48,077 nt of DNA. It comes from Anaerolineaceae bacterium. GTDB taxonomy: Bacteria; Chloroflexota; Anaerolineae; Anaerolineales; Anaerolineaceae. Below are positions 3,079-31,982 of the stretch, one piece after another. A model generated the notes under the pieces. The model was not told where the DNA came from. It did no database searches and saw only the letters and a program-made list of their open reading frames with translations. The number at the start of each line of letters is the position of its first letter. Position 1 is the stretch's first letter. Location of the stretch: NCBI GenBank assembly GCA_002702705.1, contig PABH01000066.1, forward strand, positions 1-48,077, given 5' to 3'. The position numbers and the translations under genes were made by a program.

Positions 3079-3091
3079 GTAATGCTCCTTA

Positions 3092-7109: not shown

Positions 7110-7113
7110 GTGT

Positions 7114-7142
7114 ATTATATCCCTTTTTGGTAATAATTACAA
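7114..7142 (-). promoter_or_regulatory. Internal sigma70-type promoter in front of higB
   Basis: On the minus strand, TTGTAA (7137-7142) is separated by exactly 17 bases from a perfect TATAAT (7114-7119). The -10 box ends 4 bases before the higB ATG, so transcription should begin at or next to the start codon. The -35 box overlaps the radical SAM stop codon. This would give higBA-pglZ-brxL a promoter independent of the BREX operon promoter, probably repressed by HigA as in other higBA loci. Confidence 0.6.
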
Positions 7143-8578: not shown

Positions 8579-8961
8579 GTATCACCATCCAATTTCGACA
8601 ACAAATCACGTACCGAGGCATTCATCTCATCATTTTCTCCCACTGTAATTTTATCGTTATTAACAAGGAGGAAAAACCCTGATGCTGTTTTATCCTTTGA
8701 AATCCCTTCAAAAAATTCTTTTTCGACCCCATATCGCCAAAACAAGAAATCTTCTACGGTATCATATTCGCACGCATAGTACTTTTGATATTCATTATTT
8801 AAATTTCGTGAATTAACAAAAATAGCTTGATATAATTCTTTAACAAAACTTGATGCATATGTGTCTGGATGTACCCCAGCGATTTCTAATAAATCTTTTT
8901 CGGTAGACAGTTTTTTTAAGTATAAAAAAAATTTACTGTAACTAAGATTCTTATATTTCAT
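8575..8961 (-). CDS. Small hypothetical protein of the NTPase/radical SAM cassette
   Basis: About 128 residues from the preferred ATG at 8961, which follows a GAGGGGAC ribosome site. A frame opening 12 bases further upstream lacks this. It overlaps the end of the NTPase gene by about 11 bases and the NSSS gene by 4. It is mostly helical and acidic, with YQKYYACEYDTVEDFLFWRY in the middle. No transmembrane segment or known motif is visible. Function is unknown; the tight packing indicates it belongs to the NTPase/radical SAM unit. Confidence 0.7.
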   Translation of the reverse strand: MKYKNLSYSKFFLYLKKLSTEKDLLEIAGVHPDTYASSFVKELYQAIFVNSRNLNNEYQKYYACEYDTVEDFLFWRYGVEKEFFEGISKDKTASGFFLLVNNDKITVGENDEMNASVRDLLSKLDGDT

Positions 8962-11402: not shown

Positions 11403-14400
11403 CTAAATCCCCTTCAAGGCCTTGCCAAACTTGGCGTAGTTTACCTTCACCCCATCATCCAGATCGATCGAAATCTGCTCGGTGGCCAGGGGATAAATGA
11501 TTTCACTTTCATAATCGCGCAGTTCCAACAGGGTACTGTCAATCTGGCGGCTTTCTTTTTGGGCATCCACTTTATCTTTTTTGCTGGCACCCGGGCTGCG
11601 CTCGACCGAGTCGAGGTACTCCCGCCGGGCACGTAATTTGTTCTGATACTCGCGCAGGTATTTGTTCAGCAAAACCGAAACCGTATCCGGGCGGTAGCGG
11701 TGCATGTAAATAAGGGCATTAAAACTGCCCTTGGGGCTGCTGAAGAGCCAATAAATCGGGCGTTTTTTGTAGGTCTGGACGTGGTCTTTGTAAAAATCCC
11801 GCACAAAATAGGAACGCAGGTCTTTCCCCAGGGCGTTTTCGATAAAGCTCAGGTTATCTTCATAATTTTCTTCCCCAAAGGTGATCTTTAAGAAGGATTT
11901 AAAGCGGTTGGTGATATCATCCGGGAACCAATCCCCATCCAGAACCGGGGTGACGTTATCTTCATCGGGTGTAAACGTAGGGGTTGTTGTTCCAACCTTA
12001 TTCAGATAATCAGCCACCGTCTCACCCTGGTTAGCCAGGATCAAGCCCGGTTTATCGAGCGAGTAGCGCCCAAACATGCAGCCCACCGCGTAGGAGAGGA
12101 ATTCCTTCATGGTGTCCTCCAGCAGCCTGGCTTCACGTTCGGCTTCACTGATTTTTCGGCTTTTTGTATCCGGGTAGCGGTAGTGCGGGTTGCAGGTCAG
12201 GGTAATTTCGGACAGCGGCACCTCCGGTGTGAGTTCGTCTTGCAGTCCGTAGGCTTTGATAAAAATACGGTTATTTTCTTCCTCTAACTGTTGCATTTCT
12301 AATATGGTTTTTAACCATTCCTGTCGTAAAGCTGTGTAAGCATCTTTTAAATTGAGGTATTGTTTTACCGTTTTTAACAGCGATATACGCTCAAAATCCC
12401 AAGAGGTTTCATATGAATCCCAATCTTTTTTTGAAAATTCAATCAATTTTTTTACATTAGGTAGTAAATATGAATAAAAAGTAGAATCTATAAATGGGAA
12501 CATTGCTAAAACATAAACATTGAAATCCAAAGTTGGGGCTAAAAACGACATTATATTTTTAGCCACTATCGAGTTTAAAAGACCTAAGACAATTTCTTTT
12601 CTATCAACTTTATTTGAGAATATACAATTTCCTTTCGTGTCGAATATATAACCTTTATTTGAATATCGTACAGATAATGACCCTGATGTTAATGAAGACC
12701 AAGTTAATGATTCTAAAAAATAATATTCCCGACTTTTTAATCTAACATGCCATCCTTGATTTAATTGAGATTGAAACTTTTTTAATTCCTTTCCATTATT
12801 ATGCCAATTTACAAGAAGTAAATTATTTCCATACCATTTTTTATATGGGCCGCCTTTATTATATGGATACCACTTTTCATAACGCTGTTCAGATTCCTCT
12901 AAAGAAGAACAATTAAATGCAATATTTCCATACGACACTTCACTCCAATTTCTAACAAACCTTTCATTATTACTGGTAGCCATTCCCTGTTTAATTGTTA
13001 TTATCGATCTAAGATTTACCCCCTCCATAAACACCTCCCTGACCCGATCACTAACCCAGTATGCGATCGGGGAACCGGGGATTTTATTAAAATCAGCGGC
13101 AGAAGCTTTTGTCAGTCGTTCATTTTTAACAGGAAATTCTTTGGGCCGATTTGCTTCGGATAAATCTTCATAATTCACGTACGAATAATCACCTTTGTAT
13201 TCAGGCAAATAGTTTTTTCGCCAAACGGTTGCTGCTGTTCCAAAAGCAATCCCCATCACCATATTAGCCATATGTACCATACAATCTATAGTAACCGTAT
13301 GAAGAAGTTTTTTACGTAATTCTTCATACGAAGATAAAAACATCCAACTTTGCATGGTGACCATTGCATTAAATCCAAGGTTTTGTATTAAATCAAACCC
13401 ACGTTCAATGAACATAGCAAAAGTATCTGATTTGCTGTCCGGGTAATTATCCTTCGCAAATTTTTTAAAATTTGTTTCAAAATTCCCAAAATAGGGCGGG
13501 TTGGCAACCACCACCTGATACCTGGGGGAGAGATATGTGACCATCTCCAGCACCTTCTCCACCTTGCGGTTGGTTTCATATAGAAACAGGTCGTTAAACA
13601 CCCCCCGTTCCTGCATACGTTCCCTGATGGCCTGAGGGTTACGCACCCTGGGGCGGATTAACGAGCCGAAGGTGGTGGCGTCTTCAAACTGTTTTAAACC
13701 CTCCCATAAATCCTGGGTGAAAAGGTCGCTGCCCAGTTTTTCCATATAGGTCTTCAGTTCAGCCGCGCTGAAGGTGATATTCTCCATCACGCAGATGTTG
13801 GGTTTTACATTCCGTCGGGTTAAACGGCGGTCTTTTTCGTAGGCTTTCATATAGAGGGCAAAAGCCGCTAATGAACCCGCGCGCTGGTCAATTTCAATCC
13901 CATACAGGTTGTGTTTCAGGATCAGGGCCGGAATCTGGACCGGGTCGTAACCCATCTCTTCGTAAATGGCATATAAGAGATCAAAGGCATAGGTTAGAAT
14001 ATGTCCGCTGCCGCAGGCCGGATCGCACAAACGGATTTCTTCGGGGGAGGAGAGATGGATGTATTCCGCTTCTTGTTCAATGGGCTTAATATAATACGCC
14101 ATCTTTTCGATCAATCTGGATTCAGGGTGATTTAACAACCACAAGCGGCCCAGGGAGTTTTCCACCATGTACTGCACAATCCAGTGCGGGGTGAAGAGTT
14201 GGGTCACAGCGGGAATATCTTCGGTTGGCACGGCACTTTTGCGTCCCATGACCTCATCTTTTTTATCGGAGATGTAAAACTGGTATAACCAACCGATCAC
14301 TTCCACATCCTGGCAGGCTTCCGGTGTTAAAACCTGGCGCACCTGATTGAGGATGGAACTCCCCGAAAGCAGATCGACCGGCATTAATAACTGGGTGGTA

Positions 14401-14879
14401 TCTTCGATTTTTGTAAACAGGAACGGCATCGGTCCGGCCAATTGGTTGCAGACCGCCACCAGTAATAAACGGTAGGCTTCCTGCTGGGGGTTATCCGCCG
14501 GGTGGGTATTACTTAACAGGCCCAACACCTGTTTACGATCGACCTGTAAGGTCTCCTCAATATAACCGCCTTTGGCTTCCTGCAAAATCTCCGGCTGGGT
14601 GGCGCCGCTGGCGGGAGAAACCACACCGATGCGGTTAAAGCCGTTTAAATCCATATACCGTAAGGCACACAGGCGGTTAAACCAGGTGTAGGCCACGGCT
14701 TCAATCACCTGTTCGCGGGAGGTTTGTTGGATCCGCTTTTGCAGTTCTTCAATTAAAACCGCTTTTTGATGACGTTCGACGCTGTCGGTCAGCAGCACCT
14801 GCTGTAAACGGGCCTGCACTTCTCGGATGAGTTGTTTGCGTGCTTCCTGGGCGAATTTTTTTAAGGCGGTGGTATCCAT
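11403..14879 (-). CDS. pglX: BREX-1 adenine-specific DNA methyltransferase PglX
   Basis: PglX marks host DNA at a non-palindromic adenine site so that BREX spares it. The 1158-residue length fits. N6-adenine methylase motifs are visible: motif I LCDPACGSGHIL (~284-295) and motif IV ANPPYFGNF (~459-467). A target-recognition region follows, then a long C-terminal helical domain. The DNA encoding roughly the target-recognition part (about 12,300-13,030) is clearly more AT-rich than the flanking parts of the same gene, which suggests replacement of the specificity domain. It lies 8 bp after brxC and 10 bp before the NTPase gene. Confidence 0.95.
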   Translation of the reverse strand: MDTTALKKFAQEARKQLIREVQARLQQVLLTDSVERHQKAVLIEELQKRIQQTSREQVIEAVAYTWFNRLCALRYMDLNGFNRIGVVSPASGATQPEILQEAKGGYIEETLQVDRKQVLGLLSNTHPADNPQQEAYRLLLVAVCNQLAGPMPFLFTKIEDTTQLLMPVDLLSGSSILNQVRQVLTPEACQDVEVIGWLYQFYISDKKDEVMGRKSAVPTEDIPAVTQLFTPHWIVQYMVENSLGRLWLLNHPESRLIEKMAYYIKPIEQEAEYIHLSSPEEIRLCDPACGSGHILTYAFDLLYAIYEEMGYDPVQIPALILKHNLYGIEIDQRAGSLAAFALYMKAYEKDRRLTRRNVKPNICVMENITFSAAELKTYMEKLGSDLFTQDLWEGLKQFEDATTFGSLIRPRVRNPQAIRERMQERGVFNDLFLYETNRKVEKVLEMVTYLSPRYQVVVANPPYFGNFETNFKKFAKDNYPDSKSDTFAMFIERGFDLIQNLGFNAMVTMQSWMFLSSYEELRKKLLHTVTIDCMVHMANMVMGIAFGTAATVWRKNYLPEYKGDYSYVNYEDLSEANRPKEFPVKNERLTKASAADFNKIPGSPIAYWVSDRVREVFMEGVNLRSIITIKQGMATSNNERFVRNWSEVSYGNIAFNCSSLEESEQRYEKWYPYNKGGPYKKWYGNNLLLVNWHNNGKELKKFQSQLNQGWHVRLKSREYYFLESLTWSSLTSGSLSVRYSNKGYIFDTKGNCIFSNKVDRKEIVLGLLNSIVAKNIMSFLAPTLDFNVYVLAMFPFIDSTFYSYLLPNVKKLIEFSKKDWDSYETSWDFERISLLKTVKQYLNLKDAYTALRQEWLKTILEMQQLEEENNRIFIKAYGLQDELTPEVPLSEITLTCNPHYRYPDTKSRKISEAEREARLLEDTMKEFLSYAVGCMFGRYSLDKPGLILANQGETVADYLNKVGTTTPTFTPDEDNVTPVLDGDWFPDDITNRFKSFLKITFGEENYEDNLSFIENALGKDLRSYFVRDFYKDHVQTYKKRPIYWLFSSPKGSFNALIYMHRYRPDTVSVLLNKYLREYQNKLRARREYLDSVERSPGASKKDKVDAQKESRQIDSTLLELRDYESEIIYPLATEQISIDLDDGVKVNYAKFGKALKGI

Positions 14880-14887
14880 GGTTTCTC

Positions 14888-17800
14888 CTAGAGTGAGATG
14901 CGTTTGCCTTGCTGAATAGTTTCCAGCAAAGCCTGTTTAAATTCAACCAGATAAGCATCCACATCCGCTTCCGTTTCCAAAACTTGCTGGCTGCTGTTGG
15001 CCCGGATGCTGCGGATGGAAACCACAACCCGCTCTACAGGCGGGGTAGGATTTGGGGTCGGATCGGTCGACCCCGGTATGTCCGGAACAACGGTGGCGAC
15101 TGCCAAGGCGCTGATCTGCTCTAAAAGGCTGGGGTAGGTCACCTCTTCAAACCGGCGGCGGCTGTCACGTACGGAAGCAATGATTTTTATCATATCCAGC
15201 CCTTTGACAAAAAGGGTAATCTCTTCCAGTATCTGCTGCTGCTGGTGGGAGGTCAGTTTTTGATAATCGGCGTATTCCAGCAGGGCTTGTTTGCGGCCCT
15301 CAATGGCGTTAATCGTCTGCGTGCGTTCGTGGTTTAATTTATCCTCAATTTGTTTACGAATGTTATCCATCAACGTGCGGGCCTGTACCATCTGGTTTCC
15401 ACGGTAACAATGGGGATCCGCCAGCATTTCGCGCAGGTCCTGTATCTGAGATGCATCCACCGCATCAAAATTACCTTCCATACGGTCTAAAAATTTCCGG
15501 CAGGTTTCATAAATCTCTTTTTGGTCTCCGCCCATAAAACGGCGAATTGGGGCAATTACATTTTCCCTTAAATCGAGAAGTTCCTCGCTTTCCCGGCTGA
15601 ATTCTGTCAGGAAATAAGGATAGGGTTTTTTATTTAAGGTTTCCAGCCGGTTCACCACATCCCCCAATACAGCCAGGAAGGGAAAACGGTTCTGGTTGAT
15701 TTGCATATTTTTTAGAATGCCCGTCAAATCCAACAGGGCCTGTTTGGTTTCCATCCCCAAACTGCGTCCGTCATTACCGGAGGGTTGGTTGTCAAAAAAT
15801 TCCCGGTAAAAATCTTTCAGGCTGCGGATTTGCTGGTTGCTGAAGTCAATTTGAGGCTGCACGAGCAGGTTGCTGAAGCCGTGGGTGTTGCGCAGGGCAT
15901 CGTTTAACGCCCGCCCATCGAGGATATTACTGTCAGAACGGATTTCAAGTTTGCCACGGTTATGCAAAATAGCCACCAGGCATTGGATAGCGGCCAACGA
16001 CCATCCGTACGGACGACTGCTGAAAATATTCCTGATCTTGCTGAAGGTGACACGATGTTCTTTTTGATATTCCTGCTGAATCTTATTGAGCAGTTCGATT
16101 TGTGCCTCACTGTTTTCATACGCATCCTGGTCAAATAAGGCATCCTGTTCCCTGGTTAAGAAGTTCCAAATTTCGGATTCCTGGTAAGCGACCCCACCCA
16201 GCATGCCCAGGCTGGAATAGGTGCGAATGACCAATTCATTAAAGGCCTGCACGATGCGTGTTTTGGGTTCCTGGCTGGTGATCTCCAGACAGGTGCCGTT
16301 GACGTAAAAATCGGCTTTGGTGAGCATATTCTGAATGGACGTCTGTAAGTCGGTATAACGGCGTTGATTTTGCATCCGTTTTTCGCTGAGAATTCGCAAG
16401 AAAGTTTCATTTTGGTTGTTGGTGGTGGCTTGTTGGATATAACGGATCGTTTTGCAGTATAAATACAGGTCCAGCAAAACGCGGTTATCGGCTGGTAAGG
16501 CAACAATAACCATCGGGGATACCGAAGACATCATACTTAACCTAGTCGGATTTGCGGCGTGTTCATGTTCCGGAGAGATCACCTGAATGCCCAGTTCATA
16601 TTCACGCCCAAACAGCTTTTGGTCAACCTTCTTTGTGAAATCAAAATCCTGTTTTGAGGCTTCGTGATGTAGTTTCACCGATTTAATCACCCCATCAAAA
16701 ACCATCTTTTTAATTTCATCCAAGATCTGGGAAGAATCCACTTCGGTGCTTTTAATTTCTTCTTCTACATCTTTTTCTTCATCGGTGAGGAATTCGTATT
16801 CATCCCCATTTCGTTGGATATAGGTCTGCTGCTCCAGGAGGATTAAGGCCGTTTCAATCTTTTTGGTCAGCTGGCCCAGTTCCTGTTCAAAAGATTCGGT
16901 CATCAACACGCGAATATTGTGCAGCGTGGCTTTAAAATCTTTCACATACTTGATCAAAAAAAGTGCTTTTAACACACGAATGGCGTATGGATCTTCTAAA
17001 TTTTTCTCTGCGATTTGGATTTGATGCTGCACCTGGGTGCGAATCGCCGTGCGGATCCCTTCGTACATGCGGTCAAATGTCGCCAGTACCCCGGGGTTCT
17101 CTTCCTTTAAAGTAACAACAACATCCTGAAAAACACCTAACATGGAACGTTCTCCAATGGCTGTGTAACGCCCGGTAAAAGCGTTATGGGCAGAGAGACT
17201 GGTTAACACCTGTTGGAAAAGGTCAAATTGGTAAGGGACAAAAGGATACAAACTAATAAAATGGTCTTCGTGACGGAAATTTCGATAGGACCTTCCACCG
17301 GAAAAATCAAATAGGGTGCCGAAATTGTTATGCTGTTGACGGTAAATCGGTTCTAAAAGCCGTTCCCCATATTCAGTTTTTTTCAATAAACGGGTAGCAA
17401 TCACTTCATCCACATTGGCACTGGTTAATTGAATCGGCTTTTTGAGGAAACGGCCTTGAATGCGGGCAAAATCTTGTTCTTGATTTGCGTTGATGTCCCC
17501 AATCACCGTTTTCATATCTTGCTGCGAGGTGACGATGATCCATGCACGCCGGTCACAAATCGTTGCGAGACTTTCCGCAATCGTTTGCAGATTGAGCATT
17601 AATTGAGTGTCATTGGCAATAAACTGCCCGACCTCATCCACAAAAAAATTAAGCCGGAAACCGGGTTCCTGCTGATCGATATACTCTTTAACCATATGGG
17701 CAAAATCTTCAATTGAAAATTTATAATCCTGGCGATACTCTCGGATGATATTGACCACATGCTCCTGATCACTGCCGGTTACCTGGGCATAAACCTGGGC

Positions 17801-18406
17801 AATGGTTGAATTTTTCGCCAAAGCCATGTGGCGATCCTCCAACCATGGCTTCCCGCTTATTTCAACATACGCGGTTTGAAAATCTTCATATTTTCCCTGC
17901 CTGACCAAATCACGTTCAAACTGGGCGATAAACCCATGTTTTCCATAATAACCACACATCTCATTAAATACTTTAACAAAAACAGCCAGTACCGCGTCAC
18001 GGTCTGAAGTGGTAATCTGGTCTGCCTTTTGATCGATATTAAACAGGATACTTTTTGAGGGAATCTGAAGGGCCCGTTTGATATTTCCTTTTAAAAACTC
18101 ATCATCTCCGCATTTCGGCAGGAAATAAACAAGCATGTTTTTGCCATTGATCTCACGGTTTTCGAGCAGGAGGGCTAACATTTTTAACAGATGGGACTTC
18201 CCCGATCCGAAAAAGCCTGAGAGCCAGGCGCCGTTGGCGATCGGAGAATTAATATAAGCTTCCAAAAAATTGGTCAGGTGCCCGCTGACCTCCTTTGTCA
18301 GCACATATTCTTCTACCTCGTTTTGTAAACTGCTTTCGTCATCAGCTTTAATCACCCCTTCAATGGGTCGGTCAACAGGTTTGGCAAAGATTTCTTTTAA
18401 TGACAT
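14888..18406 (-). CDS. brxC: BREX system P-loop ATPase BrxC
   Basis: A 1172-residue BrxC, the large ATPase of BREX. Walker A is SGFFGSGKSHLLKM (GFFGSGKS at 64-71) and Walker B is RLNFFVDEVGQF (near 251-262). The next ~900 residues are mostly helical, with coiled-coil-like segments near 560-600 and 1010-1100 that may support oligomerisation. The gene starts 17 bp after brxB and ends 8 bp before pglX, in the standard brxA-brxB-brxC-pglX order. Confidence 0.95.
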   Translation of the reverse strand: MSLKEIFAKPVDRPIEGVIKADDESSLQNEVEEYVLTKEVSGHLTNFLEAYINSPIANGAWLSGFFGSGKSHLLKMLALLLENREINGKNMLVYFLPKCGDDEFLKGNIKRALQIPSKSILFNIDQKADQITTSDRDAVLAVFVKVFNEMCGYYGKHGFIAQFERDLVRQGKYEDFQTAYVEISGKPWLEDRHMALAKNSTIAQVYAQVTGSDQEHVVNIIREYRQDYKFSIEDFAHMVKEYIDQQEPGFRLNFFVDEVGQFIANDTQLMLNLQTIAESLATICDRRAWIIVTSQQDMKTVIGDINANQEQDFARIQGRFLKKPIQLTSANVDEVIATRLLKKTEYGERLLEPIYRQQHNNFGTLFDFSGGRSYRNFRHEDHFISLYPFVPYQFDLFQQVLTSLSAHNAFTGRYTAIGERSMLGVFQDVVVTLKEENPGVLATFDRMYEGIRTAIRTQVQHQIQIAEKNLEDPYAIRVLKALFLIKYVKDFKATLHNIRVLMTESFEQELGQLTKKIETALILLEQQTYIQRNGDEYEFLTDEEKDVEEEIKSTEVDSSQILDEIKKMVFDGVIKSVKLHHEASKQDFDFTKKVDQKLFGREYELGIQVISPEHEHAANPTRLSMMSSVSPMVIVALPADNRVLLDLYLYCKTIRYIQQATTNNQNETFLRILSEKRMQNQRRYTDLQTSIQNMLTKADFYVNGTCLEITSQEPKTRIVQAFNELVIRTYSSLGMLGGVAYQESEIWNFLTREQDALFDQDAYENSEAQIELLNKIQQEYQKEHRVTFSKIRNIFSSRPYGWSLAAIQCLVAILHNRGKLEIRSDSNILDGRALNDALRNTHGFSNLLVQPQIDFSNQQIRSLKDFYREFFDNQPSGNDGRSLGMETKQALLDLTGILKNMQINQNRFPFLAVLGDVVNRLETLNKKPYPYFLTEFSRESEELLDLRENVIAPIRRFMGGDQKEIYETCRKFLDRMEGNFDAVDASQIQDLREMLADPHCYRGNQMVQARTLMDNIRKQIEDKLNHERTQTINAIEGRKQALLEYADYQKLTSHQQQQILEEITLFVKGLDMIKIIASVRDSRRRFEEVTYPSLLEQISALAVATVVPDIPGSTDPTPNPTPPVERVVVSIRSIRANSSQQVLETEADVDAYLVEFKQALLETIQQGKRISL

Positions 18407-18423
18407 GATTTGGGATTCCCCTT

Positions 18424-19038
18424 TTAAATTTGATAATTAAGGATGTTCGTGGCACGGTAATATTGGTTGCCGCGCAGACGATCAAACAATACCAGGGCTG
18501 TGCTGCCCTCCCCTACCTCAACATACTTTCCGGGATAAAATATGAGCATAGGTCGGTCTTTGATTGTGCTTTGCAGGTTATTTAACAGGCTGTGGGAACG
18601 CAGGTAAGGAAAAACTTCCCCAACACCGGTGATAAAAACAAGGTCACATGGGGTCAGATTCAGTTTTTCGGCGATGGCTGGGATAACAAAATCCTGCGGG
18701 TCCAGCATGCCTTGCAGCAGATCCAACAGCTCCGCCTTACTATTTTCTCGTTCAAATTCGACAACCGTCTCCCAGTTATCCTCTTGGTAAATCAATTCCA
18801 GACATAGATCGTATAAGTTAATTACCAGGACTTTAATTCCAGCGTTGGCCAGCTGGTTGGTTAACTGCCCTACAATCTCTTCCCATTCTACAGCCTCATG
18901 CGGATGATAGGGGCAGATAAAAAAGGGAACATCATTACCTGGGCCTTTCATTGAAAGAAACTGCTTCGTTTTCAGAACGTTCAGCAAATGCTTAAAGCGT
19001 TCCGGGATCTTTTGTTCCAATAAATCAGGTAGTGCCAT
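18424..19038 (-). CDS. brxB: BREX protein BrxB (DUF1788)
   Basis: A 204-residue protein matching the BrxB/DUF1788 family in length and position, with family features KGPGNDVPFFICPYHPHEAV, a VFITGVGEVFPYLRSHSLLN strand-turn and a C-terminal RPMLIFYPGKY. BrxB is a core BREX protein without an assigned enzymatic activity. Its start overlaps the end of brxA by 14 bases, indicating coupled translation, and brxC follows 17 bp downstream. Confidence 0.92.
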   Translation of the reverse strand: MALPDLLEQKIPERFKHLLNVLKTKQFLSMKGPGNDVPFFICPYHPHEAVEWEEIVGQLTNQLANAGIKVLVINLYDLCLELIYQEDNWETVVEFERENSKAELLDLLQGMLDPQDFVIPAIAEKLNLTPCDLVFITGVGEVFPYLRSHSLLNNLQSTIKDRPMLIFYPGKYVEVGEGSTALVLFDRLRGNQYYRATNILNYQI

Positions 19039-19648
19039 GTTCCCCCTCCTTAATCAGGTTAATTTGGGTTGGATAAATAGTTAAACTCCACGGGACATCA
19101 ATTTCAATTTGATTTACCACCGCTGGAGAAAGAATACAGGGAATGATTTGATTTTCCGTTGTCAAAAAATCCGCTTCTCGCAGCATACGGAACAACACTG
19201 TGCGGATCTTTACTTGAGTAGTTTCCTTTAAATTTCGCAGTTCATCATGCCAATCGGCTTTTTCATTAAAAAACACTGTGTAATCATATTCCTGCAAATC
19301 GGTATGCAGTAGCTGCACCCGCCGGAAAAGCACTTCAGCGGCAAAATCACGAATGAAAGAATACCGTTTGCAGATCATATACCACAGCATTTGTTTTTGT
19401 TCATTTAAATTGGCTTCTTCTACTAAAAAGTGCATTTGCCCTTCGGATAAGGTTTGTAAACGTGGTTCCACTTCTTGATACATCCGTTGAACGCTGGAAC
19501 TTACCCGGGCTTGTAGTAGATTTTTCTCTTTAACCCGTTCTTTCGTTCTTTCCCAATCCCCAGTCGAGAGATAGGTCTCGGCAATCACCAGGGATTCACT
19601 TAACCCCAGACTGACTGCCGTGAACGATAATTTATAATGATCCTCCAT
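19025..19648 (-). CDS. brxA: BREX protein BrxA (DUF1819)
   Basis: A 207-residue protein of the BrxA/DUF1819 family: an N-terminal LSFTAVSLGLSESLVIAE segment, a Q-rich helical middle containing LWYMICKRYSFIRDFAAEVL, and a C-terminal region with TTQVKIRTVLFRMLREADFL. BrxA is a small DNA-binding core protein of BREX. The ATG overlaps the stop of the upstream HTH gene (TAATG) and its 3' end overlaps brxB by 14 bases, so the first three genes of the operon are translationally coupled. Confidence 0.92.
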   Translation of the reverse strand: MEDHYKLSFTAVSLGLSESLVIAETYLSTGDWERTKERVKEKNLLQARVSSSVQRMYQEVEPRLQTLSEGQMHFLVEEANLNEQKQMLWYMICKRYSFIRDFAAEVLFRRVQLLHTDLQEYDYTVFFNEKADWHDELRNLKETTQVKIRTVLFRMLREADFLTTENQIIPCILSPAVVNQIEIDVPWSLTIYPTQINLIKEGEHGTT

Positions 19649-19845
19649 TAATGATCACCTTCTGTGCCAGGGATCGCAGCCGCGCCGGATTTGACCCAGG
19701 AATCCACATCGGTCTGTTTAAACATCCATTTGCGTCCCACCCGATGTGCGGGCATCGCCTTGTCCTTAATCCAGGTATAAATTGTGTCGTTACTGACTTG
19801 AAGATATTCGGCCATCTCTTCCACAGTCACCCATCGATCATCCAT
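19648..19845 (-). CDS. Excisionase-like helix-turn-helix protein heading the BREX operon
   Basis: A MerR/excisionase-type winged HTH of about 65 residues: VTVEEMAEYLQVSNDTIYTW, then AHRVGRKWMFKQTDVDSWV. The frame opens at 19863, but that codon would sit only about 9 bases from the predicted transcription start, and GAGGGAG at 19852-19858 favours the ATG at 19845 (or 19848). It is the first gene after the predicted operon promoter and its stop overlaps the brxA start. The small size fits a transcription factor of the BREX operon or a transposon-associated DNA-binding protein; the sequence does not decide between them. Confidence 0.82.
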   Translation of the reverse strand: MDDRWVTVEEMAEYLQVSNDTIYTWIKDKAMPAHRVGRKWMFKQTDVDSWVKSGAAAIPGTEGDH

Positions 19846-19878
19846 CATACACTCCCTCACCATCGTAGTCGTTGTCTA

Positions 19879-19907
19879 ATTATAGACCATTTTTTGCCGA
19901 ATACACC
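19879..19907 (-). promoter_or_regulatory. Predicted BREX operon promoter (-10 TATAAT)
   Basis: On the minus strand a perfect TATAAT lies at 19879-19884 in the 71-bp gap between nurA and the HTH gene. The -35 region (around 19902-19907) is a poor match, as expected of an activated or repressible promoter. The predicted start site near 19872 gives a leader of about 27 bases before the ATG at 19845. This is the largest gap in the left half between tnsA and pglZ, which supports it as a new transcription start. Confidence 0.5.
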
Positions 19908-19934
19908 CGAATTAGGGGGAAGTGGGAGGGGAAA

Positions 19935-21032
19935 TTATGAATGCTTTATTCGATTTTTTGCAGACCAATGCCTGACCTTTCCCCCTGCTTGATAATAAGC
20001 AGATTCAGCAAGATTACGAATTGCATCGGCTACGTCATTTTTAAGGACCACATGGTAATGGGCTTGTGCTAAAGAATAAGGATAACTTAAATCGGTACTA
20101 TCATAATGAATCGCACTGTGCACCAGATCCACTTTTTCCGGCTCTTTGGCAATCCACTGGGGAAGTTCAATTCGCATAATTTCATCGTTTACCTTCAAAT
20201 AAAAGAAATAAATGCCTAATCCCTTTTTGGTAAAACGTTGGTTATGAGCGGAACCGTTAAAAAATATTGCAGAACGTTCTCCATTTTTTAACACATGTGT
20301 GAAGAGATCACGGTCTCGATAACCATAGCGTACCGGTTTATAAGCATCCACCGGGATAACCAATGAAAACTCAATTAAATTAATCACTGATCTGGAATGC
20401 GGATTACTGATCACGGACGCTATCAATGAGCCCTGACTTTTACTAAAATATGTTTGATATTGATCCAACAGACTGCGAATTCTTAATGAAGTATTCCTTG
20501 AAAAAGAGGCCCAAGGAATTAAACTCCCATCTAGTAAAACGACTTTATTGGAACCGCCCTTATCAGCTACTTCAGAAGCTACCTTCATTTCAATTACAGC
20601 CCGTGATAGATCAATATAATTTCGAACAGTTTGTTCATCTTCTGCCAGATCCAGGATCTGTTCAGAAACACATAAACCGTCTTTCAGGGTTACCCCATGC
20701 CCCATTTCATAAGCTAAGGCAGACACCCAACCGAATCGTATGGGGCTGAAAGGATCTGGATAGATCTGCGAACCGTCTACTCCAATACAAGTAAAAAATA
20801 ATTCTTTTGTTGCGAAGATTGCGGATATTGGTTCATGTGCAGGCAAAGCACCACCGAAATGTTTCAAATACTGCGTAATCTGGTTGTTAAATTTTTCTGG
20901 GTTCTCATTTATTTGCCGTAATTCTTTACATAATAATTCCATACCGGCTGAAGTAAGCGTGTTATCCTGCTTTGCAGATATAATCCCAGTTTGTTTGGCG
21001 CTTGCATAAAGATCCCGCTCAGTCATCATCAT
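19935..21032 (-). CDS. NurA-domain nuclease coupled to tniQ
   Basis: A 365-residue protein with the NurA core: CIGVDGSQIYPD (VDGS at 85-88) and a second acidic strand VVLLDGSLIPW (~165-174). The C-terminal part carries the family's terminal histidine region, with YPYSLAQAHYHVVLKNDVAD near 320-340. NurA nucleases process DNA ends, usually with the HerA translocase, but no HerA gene is in the window. The ATGATGATGACTGA start overlaps the tniQ stop by 14 bases, so it is made as the fifth product of the Tn7-like operon rather than as part of BREX. It may act in transposition or be an independent defence nuclease; neither is shown. Confidence 0.8.
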   Translation of the reverse strand: MMMTERDLYASAKQTGIISAKQDNTLTSAGMELLCKELRQINENPEKFNNQITQYLKHFGGALPAHEPISAIFATKELFFTCIGVDGSQIYPDPFSPIRFGWVSALAYEMGHGVTLKDGLCVSEQILDLAEDEQTVRNYIDLSRAVIEMKVASEVADKGGSNKVVLLDGSLIPWASFSRNTSLRIRSLLDQYQTYFSKSQGSLIASVISNPHSRSVINLIEFSLVIPVDAYKPVRYGYRDRDLFTHVLKNGERSAIFFNGSAHNQRFTKKGLGIYFFYLKVNDEIMRIELPQWIAKEPEKVDLVHSAIHYDSTDLSYPYSLAQAHYHVVLKNDVADAIRNLAESAYYQAGGKVRHWSAKNRIKHS

Positions 21033-23220
21033 CGATTATTACTTTCGCTTCTGTAAAGATATCTAAAAAATAAGTTTGGGGAATTCTATCTATAAGATGT
21101 TGTTCAGGATAGCAAACACCTAGAGACAAAACAAACGGGGGATAAATTTCGTTAAGGAAACATATGAGTACATCCGGCCATAATTTTCGATTTTGGATAC
21201 GAATGATTTCAAAAATTCTGACTAGTATGTTTTTCGGATCTAAACCCAGGCTCGGATCTTCGTCTATTATTTGATTGACCAAATTGCTAATATTCTTTTG
21301 AGGAATAGGAAATTTTGTCCCAAGAAACCACTTAACTTTTGACAAACTGATTTTTCTATTTTTAATTTTCGATAACAACTCCTTAATATGATAATTTTCT
21401 GCTAATGAATAAACTCGTAATTGAGGTTCAGTATAACTGACCAAACGTTCATTTTTTATGAAATCTTTTAATTCCGATTCAGATAGATTTAGGAGTACCA
21501 TTATTTGGCCAAAGGTAATAAGACAAAGTTTTAAATAATTAATTTCATACCAATCAATACTACCAAAAGAACTGCTTCCAGGATTTGCATCATAGGATTG
21601 AATAAGTCCAGATTGCCTCCAGAAACAGATGGCTGGGTCTTTGAATTTGGGTCTCTCAAAGCAAGATATATCACATAGTAATTTGTTTTTTATCGAACGT
21701 TGATCTAGAATATTCTTTACTGTATTTAAATCAATTTCTGAATAAAGATAACCATGAGGGGTAGAATTTTTATTTTTAATAGGTCTATATCGGATGACCC
21801 TTGCAGCTACAGATTTAAAAAACAATGCTTCATTTCCATGAAATTTGTGAAGCGCATGATCAAAATCAATGTAAATATTTGAAAACCCGTTATTAAGGAA
21901 ATAATGTATTGGCTGATGTTTCCTAATTTTATTTGCATGGAAAGTAAATCCAAAAAAATTAATTCCAGCATCAATTAATTTTTCGCTAAACAAAGTATTT
22001 TCAAATAGGACCGTTTCTAAAAATCCATTTTCAAATAGAAAAACCAAAACATCATAAGGAATATTCATTTTTTTTTGATATTCCCTCAATGAATAACAAT
22101 TTTTTCCTTTTTCTTTGAGATAAATGTCTATTACATACCAATCCACATACTGACTACATTTATTAAAAATTGTAGGAGAATTATATTCATCGGAAGGAGT
22201 ATTATAGGGAGGGTGTTGTAAAATTTTCCTGGTCCAATGCGTAAAGGATTTGCCACCTTGGTTTTGCTCAATCTCTAAGCTAGGAAATACAAATTTTTTT
22301 TCAATGAAATTACGAATTTCTTGAAGAAAAATTTTAAATAGATTGTTCTGGGGTGCTTTTTTTAATATAAGAGAATATAAAGACTCCAATCCAAAGAGGC
22401 GATTTTCTGATGATCCTGGTTTTTTATTTTGTTTTTCTAAAAACTGATCTAACAGTAGATATAAAGACTCCGGCCAATCAGACAGAATGGTATATGCTTG
22501 AGATATAACATTATTATCATAATTTAAGTCTAAGTTACGTCCACTTAAATATTCTTGAGGTTCTAAACTTTTTATAAATTCTATTAAAAAATTAAAAAAA
22601 GAGAAAAAATTTGCTGAGGAAACCTTTAAATTCAGGTCCGGAAATTTCAAAGAATTAAATGGATTCATTTTTATAGGCACACGTAAAAAGTGGTAGATTA
22701 CCGCATTCGCCAATTTTTCAATCTCACCACAATTATTAACTTGAGTATTGGGGTGAGTTAATAAAATTCCATGATCTGGACAGGCAGTTATATATTTCAA
22801 GTTCCAACAGAGCTTTGAAAAACCTTCTTCTCGAATGCATTTTTTACATACAACCCGTTTATTAAATTCACGAACGTGTGGCATTCTTTCTAGATCAATA
22901 AATCGATTACGAGATAATCTATAATATCTCAAACCTTTATAATTTTTTGTTGGTATCCTCCAGAATTCTTGGAAATATTCGGAATAAGAGTGAAATGTCA
23001 TGTTATACAATTTTTTCACCCCTACTTCTGACAATTTCGCGATAGCTGGTAAATACTGCGGGGTAAGCAAATCTAAATATTTGGGCTCTGGTGCTCTAAT
23101 TCCAGCAAGAATAAAAAGGGTATCCATTCTCAATAACACATTTTTTTCTTTTAATTCAATAAGGTAACTTCGCATCCCCATGCCTTCTCTCGGTAGTACT
23201 TTGATAAATCTATTGGGCAT
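21019..23220 (-). CDS. tniQ: TniQ/TnsD-like target-selection protein
   Basis: A 733-residue protein after the TnsC gene in a Tn7-like operon. A TniQ-type zinc-binding region is visible near residues 125-150: VCKKCIREEG, then ITACPDHGILL (Cys125, Cys128, Cys147, His150). The large C-terminal part is helical and Lys/Asn/Ile-rich, a length typical of TnsD-like proteins that bind a specific attachment site rather than short TniQ adaptors. It starts 8 bp after tnsC and overlaps nurA by 14 bases. Which site it recognises is not visible; no glmS lies beside the putative end. Confidence 0.8.
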   Translation of the reverse strand: MPNRFIKVLPREGMGMRSYLIELKEKNVLLRMDTLFILAGIRAPEPKYLDLLTPQYLPAIAKLSEVGVKKLYNMTFHSYSEYFQEFWRIPTKNYKGLRYYRLSRNRFIDLERMPHVREFNKRVVCKKCIREEGFSKLCWNLKYITACPDHGILLTHPNTQVNNCGEIEKLANAVIYHFLRVPIKMNPFNSLKFPDLNLKVSSANFFSFFNFLIEFIKSLEPQEYLSGRNLDLNYDNNVISQAYTILSDWPESLYLLLDQFLEKQNKKPGSSENRLFGLESLYSLILKKAPQNNLFKIFLQEIRNFIEKKFVFPSLEIEQNQGGKSFTHWTRKILQHPPYNTPSDEYNSPTIFNKCSQYVDWYVIDIYLKEKGKNCYSLREYQKKMNIPYDVLVFLFENGFLETVLFENTLFSEKLIDAGINFFGFTFHANKIRKHQPIHYFLNNGFSNIYIDFDHALHKFHGNEALFFKSVAARVIRYRPIKNKNSTPHGYLYSEIDLNTVKNILDQRSIKNKLLCDISCFERPKFKDPAICFWRQSGLIQSYDANPGSSSFGSIDWYEINYLKLCLITFGQIMVLLNLSESELKDFIKNERLVSYTEPQLRVYSLAENYHIKELLSKIKNRKISLSKVKWFLGTKFPIPQKNISNLVNQIIDEDPSLGLDPKNILVRIFEIIRIQNRKLWPDVLICFLNEIYPPFVLSLGVCYPEQHLIDRIPQTYFLDIFTEAKVIIDDDD

Positions 23221-23228
23221 AGTTCACC

Positions 23229-24122
23229 TCATCCAAATGAAAACGGGTTTCTTTTTGATGACCCAGGACCCCTGCCAATTTGCAACCAAACTTGTGATAA
23301 GATCGATAAATTGATTTTTTCTTCTCCTGATTGTATAGCCTGTTTAGCTGCCCTTATTAAGAGTCGCATCAGAACTCGTTTTACGCCTTTTGACGCCAAA
23401 AAAAGTTTTTGAGCCATCGATGTCTCTGCCAGGTTGGACGGGTATTTTAGATGAAAACCGTCCTCAACATGAAACAAAAATTCTTGTAGATACCGAATAG
23501 ATTCCGGTTTTTTTTCATCCCAATTGAAATTTTTCATGTGATGTGTATTGATAAAAAGTGAACCTAACTGAGGATTCAACTCCAAAAACTCCGCAACTTT
23601 TCCATCAAGCCCCATCAAAATAATGGGAGCTGAACTTTGTTTAATTATTTGTTTGAGATGATCACATGCTGAAATAATCAATCGTGAAGTTTGCCCATCA
23701 AAAAAATGTTGAATTTCGTCTATAAAGATTAGTTCTGGTCGAAAGTAATCGATGTTTCTCTTGATTGTCTCTGCCATAATGTGGGCGTCGGTTCGACCTC
23801 TAAACGGAATTTTCAATCCAAAAAAAAATTCCTGGGAAAGTTTTTTCTCGGTCGGATTCACGGGTGTAGTTAACAAAACAGCTTTTATGGCTGACTGTGT
23901 CTCTGCATAATCATTAAGAATTCCTTGTACTACACGAGTTGCCAATTCCGTTTTTCCTGAACCAAATGGTCCCTCAATTGTCATACAGTACGGTTCATAG
24001 GGTTTGTACCCAGAATCACGGCATATCCGTATCGTTTCGAGTGCTTGTTTAATTTCAGGGGTGATAATATAAAGATTCTCGATCATTTTGATTCGTTCAA
24101 CCAAAGAAATTTCTTCCGCCAT
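23229..24122 (-). CDS. tnsC: TnsC-like AAA+ transposition regulator
   Basis: A 297-residue AAA+ ATPase. Walker A is IEGPFGSGKTELATRVV (GPFGSGKT at 51-58) and Walker B is LIFIDEIQHF (131-140). TnsC/TniB proteins form an ATP-dependent filament linking target selection (TniQ) to the transposase (TnsB). The compact size and the position between TnsB and TniQ genes support the assignment. It starts 2 bp after tnsB and ends 8 bp before tniQ. Confidence 0.9.
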   Translation of the reverse strand: MAEEISLVERIKMIENLYIITPEIKQALETIRICRDSGYKPYEPYCMTIEGPFGSGKTELATRVVQGILNDYAETQSAIKAVLLTTPVNPTEKKLSQEFFFGLKIPFRGRTDAHIMAETIKRNIDYFRPELIFIDEIQHFFDGQTSRLIISACDHLKQIIKQSSAPIILMGLDGKVAEFLELNPQLGSLFINTHHMKNFNWDEKKPESIRYLQEFLFHVEDGFHLKYPSNLAETSMAQKLFLASKGVKRVLMRLLIRAAKQAIQSGEEKINLSILSQVWLQIGRGPGSSKRNPFSFG

Positions 24123-24124
24123 GT

Positions 24125-26260
24125 CTACCTCAACTCTAAAATATTATTGGTTACATCCCACTCATCAACAACCTCAGAGAAAAAACTACCTTCAGACTCT
24201 GAATAATTATCTGTTTCCATTTCCTGTTCTTGTGTTCCTAGATCATCATAATTAAAAGCAGAACGGTCATTTGGGTGATCGATTTTTTCCGTTTGTTTCG
24301 TTTTGCTGTCAGAATGAACAATCAACCGCTTTGCTCTTCTGGCTTTTCGCATCGATCCTACTGTAACAAGATCTCGGCTAATGATTTCATTTAGGCGATT
24401 ACGAGCTTCGATAAGGCTTATTTCATGACTTTTCGCACTCTCCCGGATGAGTTGCTGTTGGTATGCATGAATGCTATGATGAGCATATAAAGATAGTCCT
24501 GAAGCGTATTCCTGAAGACTGGGGACGGCTACCAGGGGAATAAATTTTTTTGAGTAAATATGATCAAATACGTATATGCTTCCGAGATCGGTCGGATCGA
24601 CTTTTATGGTTACCTGCTGCTCTGAGGCAGATAATGTAGTGAGTTTGGTGCGTAATTTAAAAAGGTCCTTCGATTCCGTGTTTTGGTAGCGAAGATTTTC
24701 AAAATCGATTCCATAGTGGTGTATTTTTCGGGTAAATTTTCGTCCCAATAATCCCTTTAATTCCTGGTTGTCTGGAGGAAGCGCCGGGAGTCTGCCCCGT
24801 TCAATTTCAGCGTTCCAAACCTCCGCTGGACAGCGGCCATCCAAACCACGATGAGCATCGTACGGATAAATATCGACGAAAAAAACAGTTAAAATGCGAT
24901 TTAAAACCTTTTCTGTTAAACATCGATATTCCCGGCGATCATCATATCCGCTTCCCCCAAAAATCTTTTTTAGGGTAGCTGCCGGAATGTTGGCAAATAA
25001 CTGAGAATCAAGGGTGCGGAACAATCGTTCCACCATTGGTTTTAACCACGGCGAGTAGGCATCATTGCGATCAATGTCCATCCCAAGCTGCAAAGCAGCA
25101 TCCTCTAAGCTTGATCCAACAAACTCGAACCCATTATCTACAACAAGAGTATCCGGGATACCGAATCCTAACCAATCATGGCTGGTATCATAATCTTTTT
25201 TTGCATCCAATTTGGGTTGGATAGCATGGTATAGGCAGCCCTGGACCCCAACATAACCAGCGGGATCCGTACTGCAATAAAAACCGGTAATCAACTTTGT
25301 ATGAGTATCTATCATAGATGTTAAAACAGGTCTCCCAAGCGGAATATGGTGTTTTTCATCAATAATGATAATGGGGAGAATACTATGATCAATTTCACAC
25401 CTTTCCATTGGGTAAGCCACCCTTACCCCCTCGCCAATCAACCTGCCGTTACGCTTGATAAAATCCTTTCCATAACGACGCTCCATAACATCGATCGGGT
25501 CCATTGCACCGAGACGCCTACGCATGGTTGAGATGTGCGGAATTGAAATTGGTTCAGCACTAAATTTATTTTCATATGTGATTGTTTGAATGAGTTCCTC
25601 ATAGGCTTTTGTTAGTGGAGGACGATTATGTTGTAAAAATTTAGCTTCCAATGCTTGCATCAACTTTTTATCCGCTATTGGATGAATTCGCTTTTTGCCT
25701 CTTCCCCCACTACGCTGTGTTTGGGGCAGTAGGGACCGGATATCACGACCAGACCGTTCGAATTGCCGTATCCACTCTCGGATGCTGCGATCGCTGACTG
25801 CATAAGCAGCAGGCATGCGTTTACCTGTTGCCCTGCGTAATTTTAATTTCTCTTGTTCCTCCAAGGGTAATTGACTAATCAATTTTTCAAACCACGCTTC
25901 ACTATGCTGTTGAACAAGAGCTGTTGTGCGTTGACTTGGTTGCATATCCAGGAGAGATTTAATTATCTGATAACGCTGTTTAATAAGATCCTGTTTCTCA
26001 CCAGGAAGCATCGAATAATCCAGACCCTCCTGGTTTTGGTTTGGATCTTCGTTTTTGTTTTTAATATCATCATCTCGTTCAAACTCAAGATCGTCCGCGC
26101 AGTACGCCTGTAAAACTTCTTCTATACCATACAACTCATGTTTTTTTAAACCAATGTTAAAAACTTTGATTTGTTGATCCGGTAATCCAACCTCATCGAT
26201 GCGATAACCAATCCCCCTCCATTGAAACTTTTGGCCAATCCGGAAGAATATTTTAGACAT
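24125..26260 (-). CDS. tnsB: TnsB-like DDE transposase
   Basis: An ~711-residue RNase H-fold transposase. The ATG at 26260 is preferred: GGAGG lies 5-6 bases before it, and the upstream TTG falls inside that ribosome site. Helix-turn-helix domains occupy the N-terminal ~250 residues. The catalytic triad is in RCEIDHSILP (Asp near 291), LVVDNGFEFVG (Asp near 375) and PWLKPMVERLFRT (Glu near 411), giving the D-35-E spacing of the rve family. A Mu-type beta-barrel region and a charged tail follow. TnsB binds the transposon ends and carries out strand transfer. Its start overlaps the tnsA stop by 8 bases. Confidence 0.93.
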   Translation of the reverse strand: MSKIFFRIGQKFQWRGIGYRIDEVGLPDQQIKVFNIGLKKHELYGIEEVLQAYCADDLEFERDDDIKNKNEDPNQNQEGLDYSMLPGEKQDLIKQRYQIIKSLLDMQPSQRTTALVQQHSEAWFEKLISQLPLEEQEKLKLRRATGKRMPAAYAVSDRSIREWIRQFERSGRDIRSLLPQTQRSGGRGKKRIHPIADKKLMQALEAKFLQHNRPPLTKAYEELIQTITYENKFSAEPISIPHISTMRRRLGAMDPIDVMERRYGKDFIKRNGRLIGEGVRVAYPMERCEIDHSILPIIIIDEKHHIPLGRPVLTSMIDTHTKLITGFYCSTDPAGYVGVQGCLYHAIQPKLDAKKDYDTSHDWLGFGIPDTLVVDNGFEFVGSSLEDAALQLGMDIDRNDAYSPWLKPMVERLFRTLDSQLFANIPAATLKKIFGGSGYDDRREYRCLTEKVLNRILTVFFVDIYPYDAHRGLDGRCPAEVWNAEIERGRLPALPPDNQELKGLLGRKFTRKIHHYGIDFENLRYQNTESKDLFKLRTKLTTLSASEQQVTIKVDPTDLGSIYVFDHIYSKKFIPLVAVPSLQEYASGLSLYAHHSIHAYQQQLIRESAKSHEISLIEARNRLNEIISRDLVTVGSMRKARRAKRLIVHSDSKTKQTEKIDHPNDRSAFNYDDLGTQEQEMETDNYSESEGSFFSEVVDEWDVTNNILELR

Positions 26261-26885
26261 TTTTACCTCCAAATTCGAGCGGCAGCCAGATATAAGATTT
26301 GAGGTGGATTGGGGTATGCGTTAACTCCGTGACAAGTTTTCCCGCGTAAAGCAGAGAGTATATGAAAACTAAAAGATTTTTCGATTCCGTCTGGATCATC
26401 CGCATCAAATGATCCAGTCTTAATCGGTCGCCATGTTGTAAGATTTCCACAGTTTGTGTTTGCACCTCTAACGGAACAACAACAACGTTAAAACGTCGCA
26501 AGAATTTTACATTTTCGAGGAGATATGGTTTCTGAATTTCCTCATCCGTTTTTACAAGATAGCGATACCCCAGTTTTTCACAGCAAGACTCACCACAGGA
26601 AAATTTTTTCAGGTTTTTCGGATGATCCAGCTGATGTCTGGGTTTCACCTCAACCACACATGGGCGTTGATCATAAAACTCTACAAAAAAATCGGGCAAG
26701 TAGGTCCTGAGCCTGCCATTAAAATCATACTCCCACGCAAATGCTTCATATGAGTAAGTCTTGACAGAGGGGTCAAAATCAAGGAGTTTTAGAAACTCCG
26801 CTTCTAAATAAGATCGTAGGAAAAATATTTTTCCTGTTTTTAGACTAACAACTTTACCCCGGTACATAATCGCACTCCAGTTCAT
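26253..26885 (-). CDS. tnsA: TnsA-like endonuclease
   Basis: A 210-residue TnsA homologue. The N-terminal restriction-endonuclease-like fold shows LRSYLEAEFLKLLDFD (Glu near 28), RTYLPDFFVEF (Asp near 65) and RPCVVEVKPRHQL (Glu79, Lys81), the expected E-D-ExK set. TnsA cuts the 5' strands at the ends so that Tn7-like elements move by cut-and-paste rather than forming cointegrates. An ATG six codons in (26867) has a better ribosome site (GGAG) and may be the true start. It is the outermost gene, as in Tn7, with putative transposon-end repeats upstream. Confidence 0.9.
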   Translation of the reverse strand: MNWSAIMYRGKVVSLKTGKIFFLRSYLEAEFLKLLDFDPSVKTYSYEAFAWEYDFNGRLRTYLPDFFVEFYDQRPCVVEVKPRHQLDHPKNLKKFSCGESCCEKLGYRYLVKTDEEIQKPYLLENVKFLRRFNVVVVPLEVQTQTVEILQHGDRLRLDHLMRMIQTESKNLLVFIYSLLYAGKLVTELTHTPIHLKSYIWLPLEFGGKNV

Positions 26886-26979
26886 AACTATACGAAAAAC
26901 ACAGATTGTTTTTTTCTCCAGTTTGCTTGCTAACCAGTTTCAAACCTTTCGCTTGTTTCAAGTTTTGCCGTATCATGTT

Positions 26980-27449
26980 TTTTTATGACATTTATTTTGT
27001 TGACGTTGGCAATTTTGTTAACAATCACTCATGTTGTTTTCTACAACAACTCTGTCAGATGCATAGGTTGTTCTATTACGTTTTTTCTATGACCATCTTT
27101 TAGAGTGTTGTTGTCGTTTTAAGCATAACGAATTCTTCTGCAAAAATTATTCAGATTTCTAAAAGAGATTGCATTAATAAGCCGGTTTTGATGAAAATTG
27201 CAGCAAATACTGAATATTTTGGGCGAATTGCAGTAATTTTTCACATACCGTGACATTGTTGTTAGAATATACCGTGACATTCCCTGATAACCCTTAATGT
27301 GGTTATTTTCGCTCAGCAGGCTGTGTGTAATTTTTGAACAAGCAAGAAATTTCTTTGTGATCTCAAATACGCAACCGTCCCCAAACCCGGGGTATCAAAA
27401 AACCATAAGCTTTTGTTGTTATAAGTTTGTCATTATGACAATTGTGACA
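26980..27449 (-). mobile_element. Putative right end of the Tn7-like transposon (TnsB-site-like repeats)
   Basis: Read on the minus strand, a motif close to AATGTCAYRRT recurs at about 26984-26993, 27245-27257, 27269-27281, 27428-27440 and 27440-27449. The pair at 27245 and 27269 share 13 identical bases (ATACCGTGACATT on plus) 24 bp apart. AATTGCAG also recurs at 27196 and 27226. The copy ending at 27449 abuts a 7-bp-arm palindrome (27427-27441) and would give a TGT...ACA-type terminus at 27449; an alternative terminus is 27279. Repeated end motifs upstream of tnsA match Tn7 architecture. The other end is not in the window, so the boundary is unproven. Confidence 0.45.
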
Positions 27450-27554
27450 ATCCAACTAAACGGGGTTAGAGGTGTTGAAGAAAGTCGCTTAACAAAGTCT
27501 CCATATTGCATAGGAAAAACATTCCAGCGCAGAAAAAAAGATAAAAACGGGTAA

Positions 27555-27975: not shown

Positions 27976-28012
27976 TAATTTGTATAATATCCATATATTT
28001 ACTAAATAATTT

Positions 28013-29559: not shown

Positions 29560-29630
29560 ATTCATGGACCTTAACAAAAAGAGGTAGGTAGGTATCCTAA
29601 AGTTTGCGAAAACCTAAAAAGGAGAACCGA

Positions 29631-31980: not shown

Positions 31981-31982
31981 GG

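What the first reader, a model, noticed from the sequence alone, without database searches (positions are those of the whole stretch)
11403..27449. BREX carried directly downstream of a Tn7-like TnsABC-TniQ operon
On one strand, with small gaps, tnsA-tnsB-tnsC-tniQ-nurA lead into brxA-brxB-brxC-pglX. TnsA has a full E-D-ExK set and TnsB a D-D-35-E triad, so both strands could be cut and the element could be active. tnsA is outermost, with putative end repeats upstream, so BREX sits where Tn7 cargo lies. The arrangement predicts that BREX is mobilised as cargo.
Basis: partly seen in the sequence, partly recalled or inferred. Interest (0 to 1): 0.72.

Follow-up and report, generated by a model that had tools for sequence, protein, structure and literature searches.

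The report
Phage-defence operon beside Tn7-like transposon genes
A bacterium related to Leptolinea carries a complete BREX phage-defence system directly beside an intact set of Tn7-like jumping-gene enzymes, a pairing already known elsewhere; BREX riding as cargo is plausible here but unproven, because neither end of the element could be shown.

Summary
The gene order is real. On the minus strand an intact tnsA-tnsB-tnsC-tniQ operon, with nurA overlapping tniQ by 14 bp, is followed after 86 bp by a small HTH gene and a complete BREX-1 set. TnsB has D295-D379-(35)-E415; TnsA keeps E, D and ExK.

The cargo claim is partly supported. For it: several related elements carry genes between tniQ and a known left end, among them Ssp/BREX-4-like systems. 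The pairing appeared in 1 of 13 BrxC loci (400 genomes) and 0 of 80 TnsB loci. BREX as Tn7-like cargo is published (Benler 2021), so this is a new member of a known kind, in a phylum not on that paper's BREX line. A side result is stronger: many relatives start just after the gyrB stop codon; this genome's gyrB site is empty.

The parts
26253..26885 (-). tnsA, PD-(D/E)xK endonuclease, 210 aa
   Evidence: PF08722 9.4e-12; E, D, ExK aligned with relatives
24125..26272 (-). tnsB, DDE transposase, 715 aa
   Evidence: Mu-transpos_C; D295-D379-35-E415 invariant in 8 of 8; profile matches solved TnsBs
23229..24122 (-). tnsC/tniB AAA+ ATPase, 297 aa
   Evidence: PF05621 8e-15
21019..23220 (-). tniQ/tnsD-like target selector, 733 aa; keeps the CxxC..CxxH, lacks the second zinc knuckle and the C-terminal repeats of the gyrB-type TniQs
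   Evidence: PF06527 1.7e-7; 16-17% identity in alignment
19935..21032 (-). nurA, NurA-domain nuclease, 365 aa, overlaps tniQ by 14 bp
   Evidence: PF09376 2e-21; not found in the other tns loci held
19648..19848 (-). 66-aa excisionase-type HTH gene, 1 bp overlap with brxA; start of the BREX module
   Evidence: TIGR01764 4.1e-19; MAD1-like NF047737 76.6 bits, under its cut-off of 80; an HTH gene at the same position in the pLM6 BREX without tns
19025..19648 (-). brxA
   Evidence: PF08849 1.5e-46
18424..19038 (-). brxB
   Evidence: PF08747 1.1e-36
14888..18406 (-). brxC
   Evidence: NF033441 1137 bits
11403..14879 (-). pglX, BREX-1 type
   Evidence: NF033452 1391.8 bits
8951..11392 (-). NTPase with Avs2-like part, inside the BREX locus
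   Evidence: PADLOC Avs2 4.4e-19
5599..8973 (-). insert between pglX and pglZ: two unknown ORFs, radical SAM (viperin-like hit), higB, PD-Lambda-2_B
3092..5602 (-). pglZ
   Evidence: PF08665 2.1e-55
1012..3111 (-). brxL
   Evidence: PF13337 6.6e-128
27245..27281 (-). two copies of AATGTCACGGTAT, 24 bp apart; weak candidate for right-end TnsB sites
   Evidence: no left-end partner found

Best explanation
An intact Tn7-like transposition operon (TnsA and TnsB cut and join, TnsC regulates, TniQ chooses the target) stands in a defence island, and a self-contained BREX-1 module with extra defence genes lies directly behind it. Most likely BREX is, or was, cargo of this element: the right end lies within about 1.1 kb upstream of tnsA and the left end beyond brxL, off this contig. 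Shown: genes, order, catalytic residues, module border at 19849-19934. Inferred: both ends, mobility, BREX being moved. NurA, probably translated together with TniQ, is of unknown role.
For: Intact tnsABC-tniQ and complete BREX-1. Several relatives carry genes between tniQ and the left end: G447 is a 13,464-bp element with a CGCTA duplication and R-M-like genes there (named by eye); G181 has SspB/SspC/SspD-like genes between its two end candidates, whose flanks show no matching duplication; G492 (Ktedonobacter SOSP1-85) has BrxP, SspB/SspC-like, BrxL and weakly matching PglZ genes between tniQ and its left end at gyrB. Nearly cargo-free relatives have a clear left end soon after tniQ; no such end was found in the window behind tniQ. 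Benler et al. 2021 list 40 Tn7-like transposons with BrxC (PMC8649781, passages).
Against: No left end, target duplication or empty site. The right end is not established. BREX starts with its own HTH gene, as in pLM6 without tns, and the same genome has a second BREX on C45 without tns. Of 13 BrxC places in 400 genomes (2 of them under the family cut-off) only the window's is near a TnsB or TniQ match (the tool scored only the best few candidates per genome). 0 of 80 TnsB loci (the best 80 of 197) carry brxA/B/C, pglX, pglZ or brxL matches within the 10 kb or less held. G+C is mosaic, 0.27-0.51.
Confidence: 0.55

Rival explanations
1. Defence-island neighbour: the tns operon is a resident or decayed element that lost one or both ends, and BREX arrived separately; the two only share an island.
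Against: The tns and nurA ORFs are open with TnsA and TnsB catalytic residues kept, so the genes show no decay. G017 and G181 also show no repeat excess upstream of tnsA though their left ends are plain, so absence here is weak evidence.
Confidence: 0.3
2. Small element: the transposon is only tnsABC-tniQ(-nurA), its left end lies in the 86-bp gap 19849-19934, and BREX is outside.
For: Nearly cargo-free elements of 5.6-6.0 kb exist among relatives (Allocoleopsis, Nostoc, two G113 loci); the gap is a module border.
Against: No TnsB-site-like array stands out in the gap or elsewhere behind tnsC; the same scan found the left end in 8 of 9 controls.
Confidence: 0.1
3. Functional unit: Tns proteins and BREX work together, for example as a defence that inserts or cuts DNA.
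For: Adjacency on one strand only.
Against: Pairing not seen in the other loci sampled; module border with its own HTH gene; no fusion or shared gene.
Confidence: 0.03

Closest known systems
Tn7-like transposons carrying BREX (Benler et al. 2021, mBio, PMC8649781; passages seen)
   Same: Tn7-like genes with defence cargo; 40 transposons with BrxC in their Table 1
   Different: Their BREX line lists Pro, Act, Fir, Cy, Nit, DT; this is Chloroflexota. Their 6,549 elements were delimited; here no end is proven.
   Same: TnsB 27-30% identical, TniQ of about 705-760 aa, genes behind tniQ
   Different: They sit at the gyrB stop codon; the window genome's gyrB is empty and its TniQ is only 16-17% identical.
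Tn7017-type I-F3 CAST with a TniQ-targeted parE site (review PMC11406308; passages seen)
   Same: TniQ targeting of a type II topoisomerase B-subunit gene resembles the gyrB site of the relatives; the TnsB profile matches I-F3 TnsB structures best
   Different: No Cascade genes with tniQ here; type III cas genes lie beyond tnsA.
BREX-1 of Methylomonas koyamae pLM6 (NZ_CP023670)
   Same: HTH-brxA-brxB-brxC-(insert)-pglX-(insert)-pglZ-brxL; BrxC 48.4% identical
   Different: WGR-domain and recombinase genes, not tns, lie upstream.

Membership tests
Tn7-like transposon | TnsA + TnsB heteromeric transposase with catalytic residues | tested here: met
Tn7-like transposon | TnsC-type ATPase and TniQ/TnsD in the operon | tested here: met
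Tn7-like transposon | left and right ends with arrays of TnsB sites, terminal TGT | tested here: inconclusive
   no end pair found in the window or, for two candidate motifs, in the genome; contig edge 1 kb past brxL
Tn7-like transposon | 5-bp target duplication | tested here: inconclusive
   left end not seen on the contig; duplication found in 4 of 6 relatives printed
Tn7-like transposon | conserved attachment site | tested here: inconclusive
   gyrB site of this genome is empty; another site cannot be seen
BREX type 1 | brxA, brxB, brxC, pglX, pglZ, brxL in order | tested here: met
BREX type 1 | site-specific adenine methylation and phage protection | not testable with these tools
   needs an experiment
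CRISPR-associated transposon | cas effector genes within the element, working with TniQ | tested here: inconclusive
   the type III locus lies outside tnsA, divergent; 8 spacers have no match in the window under 14 mismatches; ends unknown

The most novel reading that the evidence does not exclude
The NurA nuclease, whose start overlaps the end of tniQ by 14 bp, is a new accessory protein of a Tn7-like element (target selection or processing of the insertion), as TnsF overlaps TniQ in a Tn6022-like element; the element carries BREX as cargo to an attachment site other than gyrB.
Probability: 0.12. Interest if true: 0.6.

Novelty: new member of a known kind. Interest (0 to 1): 0.3.

Why it matters
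If the ends are found, this adds a BREX-carrying Tn7-like element in Chloroflexota, a phylum not on the BREX line of the published count, and shows how a whole BREX with nested extra defences can move. The comparison also turned up a recurrent attachment site just after the gyrB stop codon that gives a ready test of TniQ targeting.

Tried and rejected
AATGTCACGGTAT: with up to 3 mismatches the window holds 13, against 14.05 expected, so only the two exact copies stand out; with up to 2 mismatches the genome holds 46 and 53 against 53 and 53 for the reversed control, with no other same-strand pair within 900 bp and one opposite-strand pair 22 bp apart on C21. Inverted repeats between 26886-28012 and 1-1011: nothing better than 14 of 18 matching, no shuffle control run. 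End scan against all sequence behind tnsC: best window scores 7, 8 and 13 for three upstream lengths, with wrong-strand controls 7, 8 and 9; the 13 and a 12 fall near 9.3 and 16.9 kb, inside the NTPase and brxC genes. Of 9 relatives, 8 give their left end as the top score and G210 fails. Most control ends were first found by a similar repeat search; the independent support for them is four 5-bp duplications and the gyrB junctions. Site cores of relatives: no cluster in the window.

gyrB as target in this genome: empty. Empty site by flank: 27 of 101 genomes match (own included), but only in repeats at about 29530-30039 and 42330-42597; the tool scored only the best 2 candidates per genome, so weaker flank matches may be missed. 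The same limit applies to the TnsB, BrxC and TniQ surveys. Promoter and terminator scan of 19500-21100: no excess over shuffles (4 against 4.1; 1 against 1.2). NurA relatives: none in plasmids, PDB, PHROGs or viral contigs, nor by phmmer in frames of 100 aa or more of 190 held loci. Single-sequence TnsB scan of genome contigs found nothing. Type III CAST considered: unlikely, because the cas genes lie outside tnsA and no tniQ is among them. and part failed for script reasons; the comparison ran. G481 was not followed beyond (a long repeat near tnsA). No structure prediction was run.
Full report
What is there. The window is the complete contig C68 (48,077 bases) of a 5.9-Mb draft genome in 74 contigs. 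Genome G017 of the same family has a contig identical in length to one of Leptolinea tardivitalis YMTK-2, so this is a Leptolinea-family member of the Chloroflexota (the family name Anaerolineaceae is recalled). On the minus strand lie tnsA, tnsB, tnsC, tniQ, nurA, a small HTH gene and brxA, brxB, brxC, pglX; then an insert of defence-like genes; then pglZ and brxL. On the plus strand, beyond tnsA, lie an unknown gene, a type III CRISPR-Cas locus (Cas10, RAMP proteins, a CARF protein, Cas6) and an array of 9 repeats. TnsB has D295, D379 and E415 with 35 residues between the last two, and TnsA keeps its E, D and ExK. The genome has one TnsA, one TnsB and one TniQ match.

Module border. nurA overlaps tniQ by 14 bp and is probably read with it. 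The next gene, a 66-aa excisionase-type HTH, overlaps brxA by one base. A small HTH gene sits at the same place in the BREX of Methylomonas koyamae pLM6, where no tns genes are annotated nearby. So BREX is a self-contained module and the border is the 86-bp stretch 19849-19934. The same genome has a second BREX on contig C45 whose BrxL is 72% identical; tblastn found no tns genes or nurA in the held stretch of C45, and no HTH ORF of 55 aa or more stands directly before its brxA.

Relatives of the transposase. TnsB matches 5 of 151 near genomes and 29 of 400 in the phylum, its own included in both; apart from itself none is above 38% identity. I followed the strongest loci. Clear ends (terminal TGT, repeated sites) were found for several, with matching 5-bp duplications in 4 of 6 printed: Allocoleopsis AAGTA, two G113 loci CTTAT and TCGTA, G447 CGCTA; Nostoc and G161 had none, nor do the flanks of G181 match. 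Some elements are 5.6-6.0 kb with little or no cargo; others carry genes between tniQ and the left end: R-M-like genes in G447 and G017 (named by eye from the ORFs, not by a family search), Ssp-like genes in G181 and BrxP/Ssp/BrxL/PglZ-like genes in G492. BREX in the window lies in that same place. This is the main support for the cargo reading.

gyrB. In 7 of 7 Chloroflexota loci where gyrB was in reach (G161, G447, G181, G210, G017, G492, L118), the left end begins 1-14 bp after its stop codon. In the 9 Pseudomonadota loci with gyrB in reach, a TGT followed by repeated sites also lies just after the stop codon, on the tnsA side (judged by eye, the other end not sought, and some could be the paralogue parE). 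This is not universal: no gyrB was found in the held stretches of G368, G481 (two loci), G140, one G113 locus, Allocoleopsis or Nostoc, and only 11 of 80 named loci had it within the 10 kb or less held. The window genome's gyrB is followed by what looks like a hairpin and T-run and the next gene, with no element. The window's TniQ is only 16-17% identical to the gyrB-type TniQs and lacks their second zinc knuckle and C-terminal repeats, which fits a different target. A parE-targeting TniQ is known (review PMC11406308, passages). As to gyrB in print: one search found 0 papers; two searches listed 15 and 5 papers, none with a title on this, and the passages of one of them (PMC12452197) use gyrB only as a tree marker; one search listed 10 of 69 papers, none of the 10 holding gyrB; PMC8649781 and PMC10293859 do not mention gyrB in the main text. 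That is not proof that it is unpublished.

The ends of the window's element. The scan that recovers the left end in 8 of 9 relatives gives scores near its controls in the window. The only clear repeat near tnsA is a 13-bp pair without a partner pair elsewhere. This absence is weak evidence against an element: the contig stops 1 kb past brxL, and G017 and G181 also show no repeat excess before tnsA although their left ends are plain (G492 shows none either, but the stretch tested there is mostly a second tniQ gene). No relative shared the right flank beyond two repeats, in a search that scored 2 candidates per genome, so no empty site could be read.

How general is the pairing. Of 13 BrxC places in 12 of 400 genomes (11 over the family cut-off), only the window's is near a TnsB or TniQ match; in G481 they are more than 800 kb apart. 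Of 80 TnsB loci from named records (the best 80 of 197), none has a match to the window's BREX proteins within the 10 kb or less held on each side; many contigs are short, and two of the 80 (L102, L108) do carry Ssp or BrxP-like genes. The pairing is therefore not conserved in the sample, as expected for cargo or for chance neighbours, and not as expected for one joint system.

Compared with what is known. Benler et al. 2021 (passages) report BrxC in 40 Tn7-like transposons of Pro, Act, Fir, Cy, Nit and DT, and type III CRISPR in two. The finding is thus a new member of a known kind. Its unusual point is NurA overlapping TniQ. Faure et al. 2023 (passages) describe TnsF, a target selector whose gene overlaps tniQ in a Tn6022-like element, and do not mention NurA in the main text. 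NurA was not seen in any other tns locus held here, so its role rests on one case.

Verdict. Observation confirmed except for the end repeats; interpretation plausible and unproven; interest modest.

Noticed in passing
L063, L055, L058, L060, L067, L090, L118 (Chloroflexota); L143, L144, L151, L158, L159, L167, L173, L177, L179 (Pseudomonadota): Tn7-like elements related to the window's TnsB start directly after the gyrB (or parE-like) stop codon: left end in 7 of 7 Chloroflexota loci with gyrB in reach, tnsA-side array in the 9 Pseudomonadota loci with gyrB in reach, by eye. A recurrent attachment site.
   Followed up: partly
L053, L054, L090 (G492, Ktedonobacter sp. SOSP1-85): tnsABC flanked by two large tniQ genes; between the downstream tniQ and gyrB lie BrxP, SspB/SspC-like, BrxL and weakly PglZ-like genes, a BREX-4-like set as apparent cargo (the type name is recalled).
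   Followed up: partly
window 5599-11392: BREX operon with nested extra defence-like genes between pglX and pglZ: Avs2-like NTPase, viperin-like radical SAM, higB, PD-Lambda-2_B.
   Followed up: no
window 30457-42311: Type III CRISPR-Cas with a RAMP protein (36699-37868) similar to TIGR03986 and to part of the III-E gRAMP model, a CARF protein, 9 repeats and 8 spacers; no cas1 or cas2 identified in the genes scanned.
   Followed up: no
window 29530-30039: Non-coding-looking stretch with 64-84% similar pieces in many genomes of the family, several at contig ends; no ORF of 100 aa and no Rfam match at gathering score.
   Followed up: partly
window 43953-48077 and G000 contig C28 (L071): Giant surface-type ORF running off the right edge; C28 ends in closely similar repeats with an Rhs-like continuation, so C28 may continue C68. 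The left edge (3-159) is 97% identical to a gene on C28.
   Followed up: partly
G000 contig C45 about 22341-35238 (L086, L087): Second complete BREX-1 in the same genome, without tns genes in the held stretch.
   Followed up: partly
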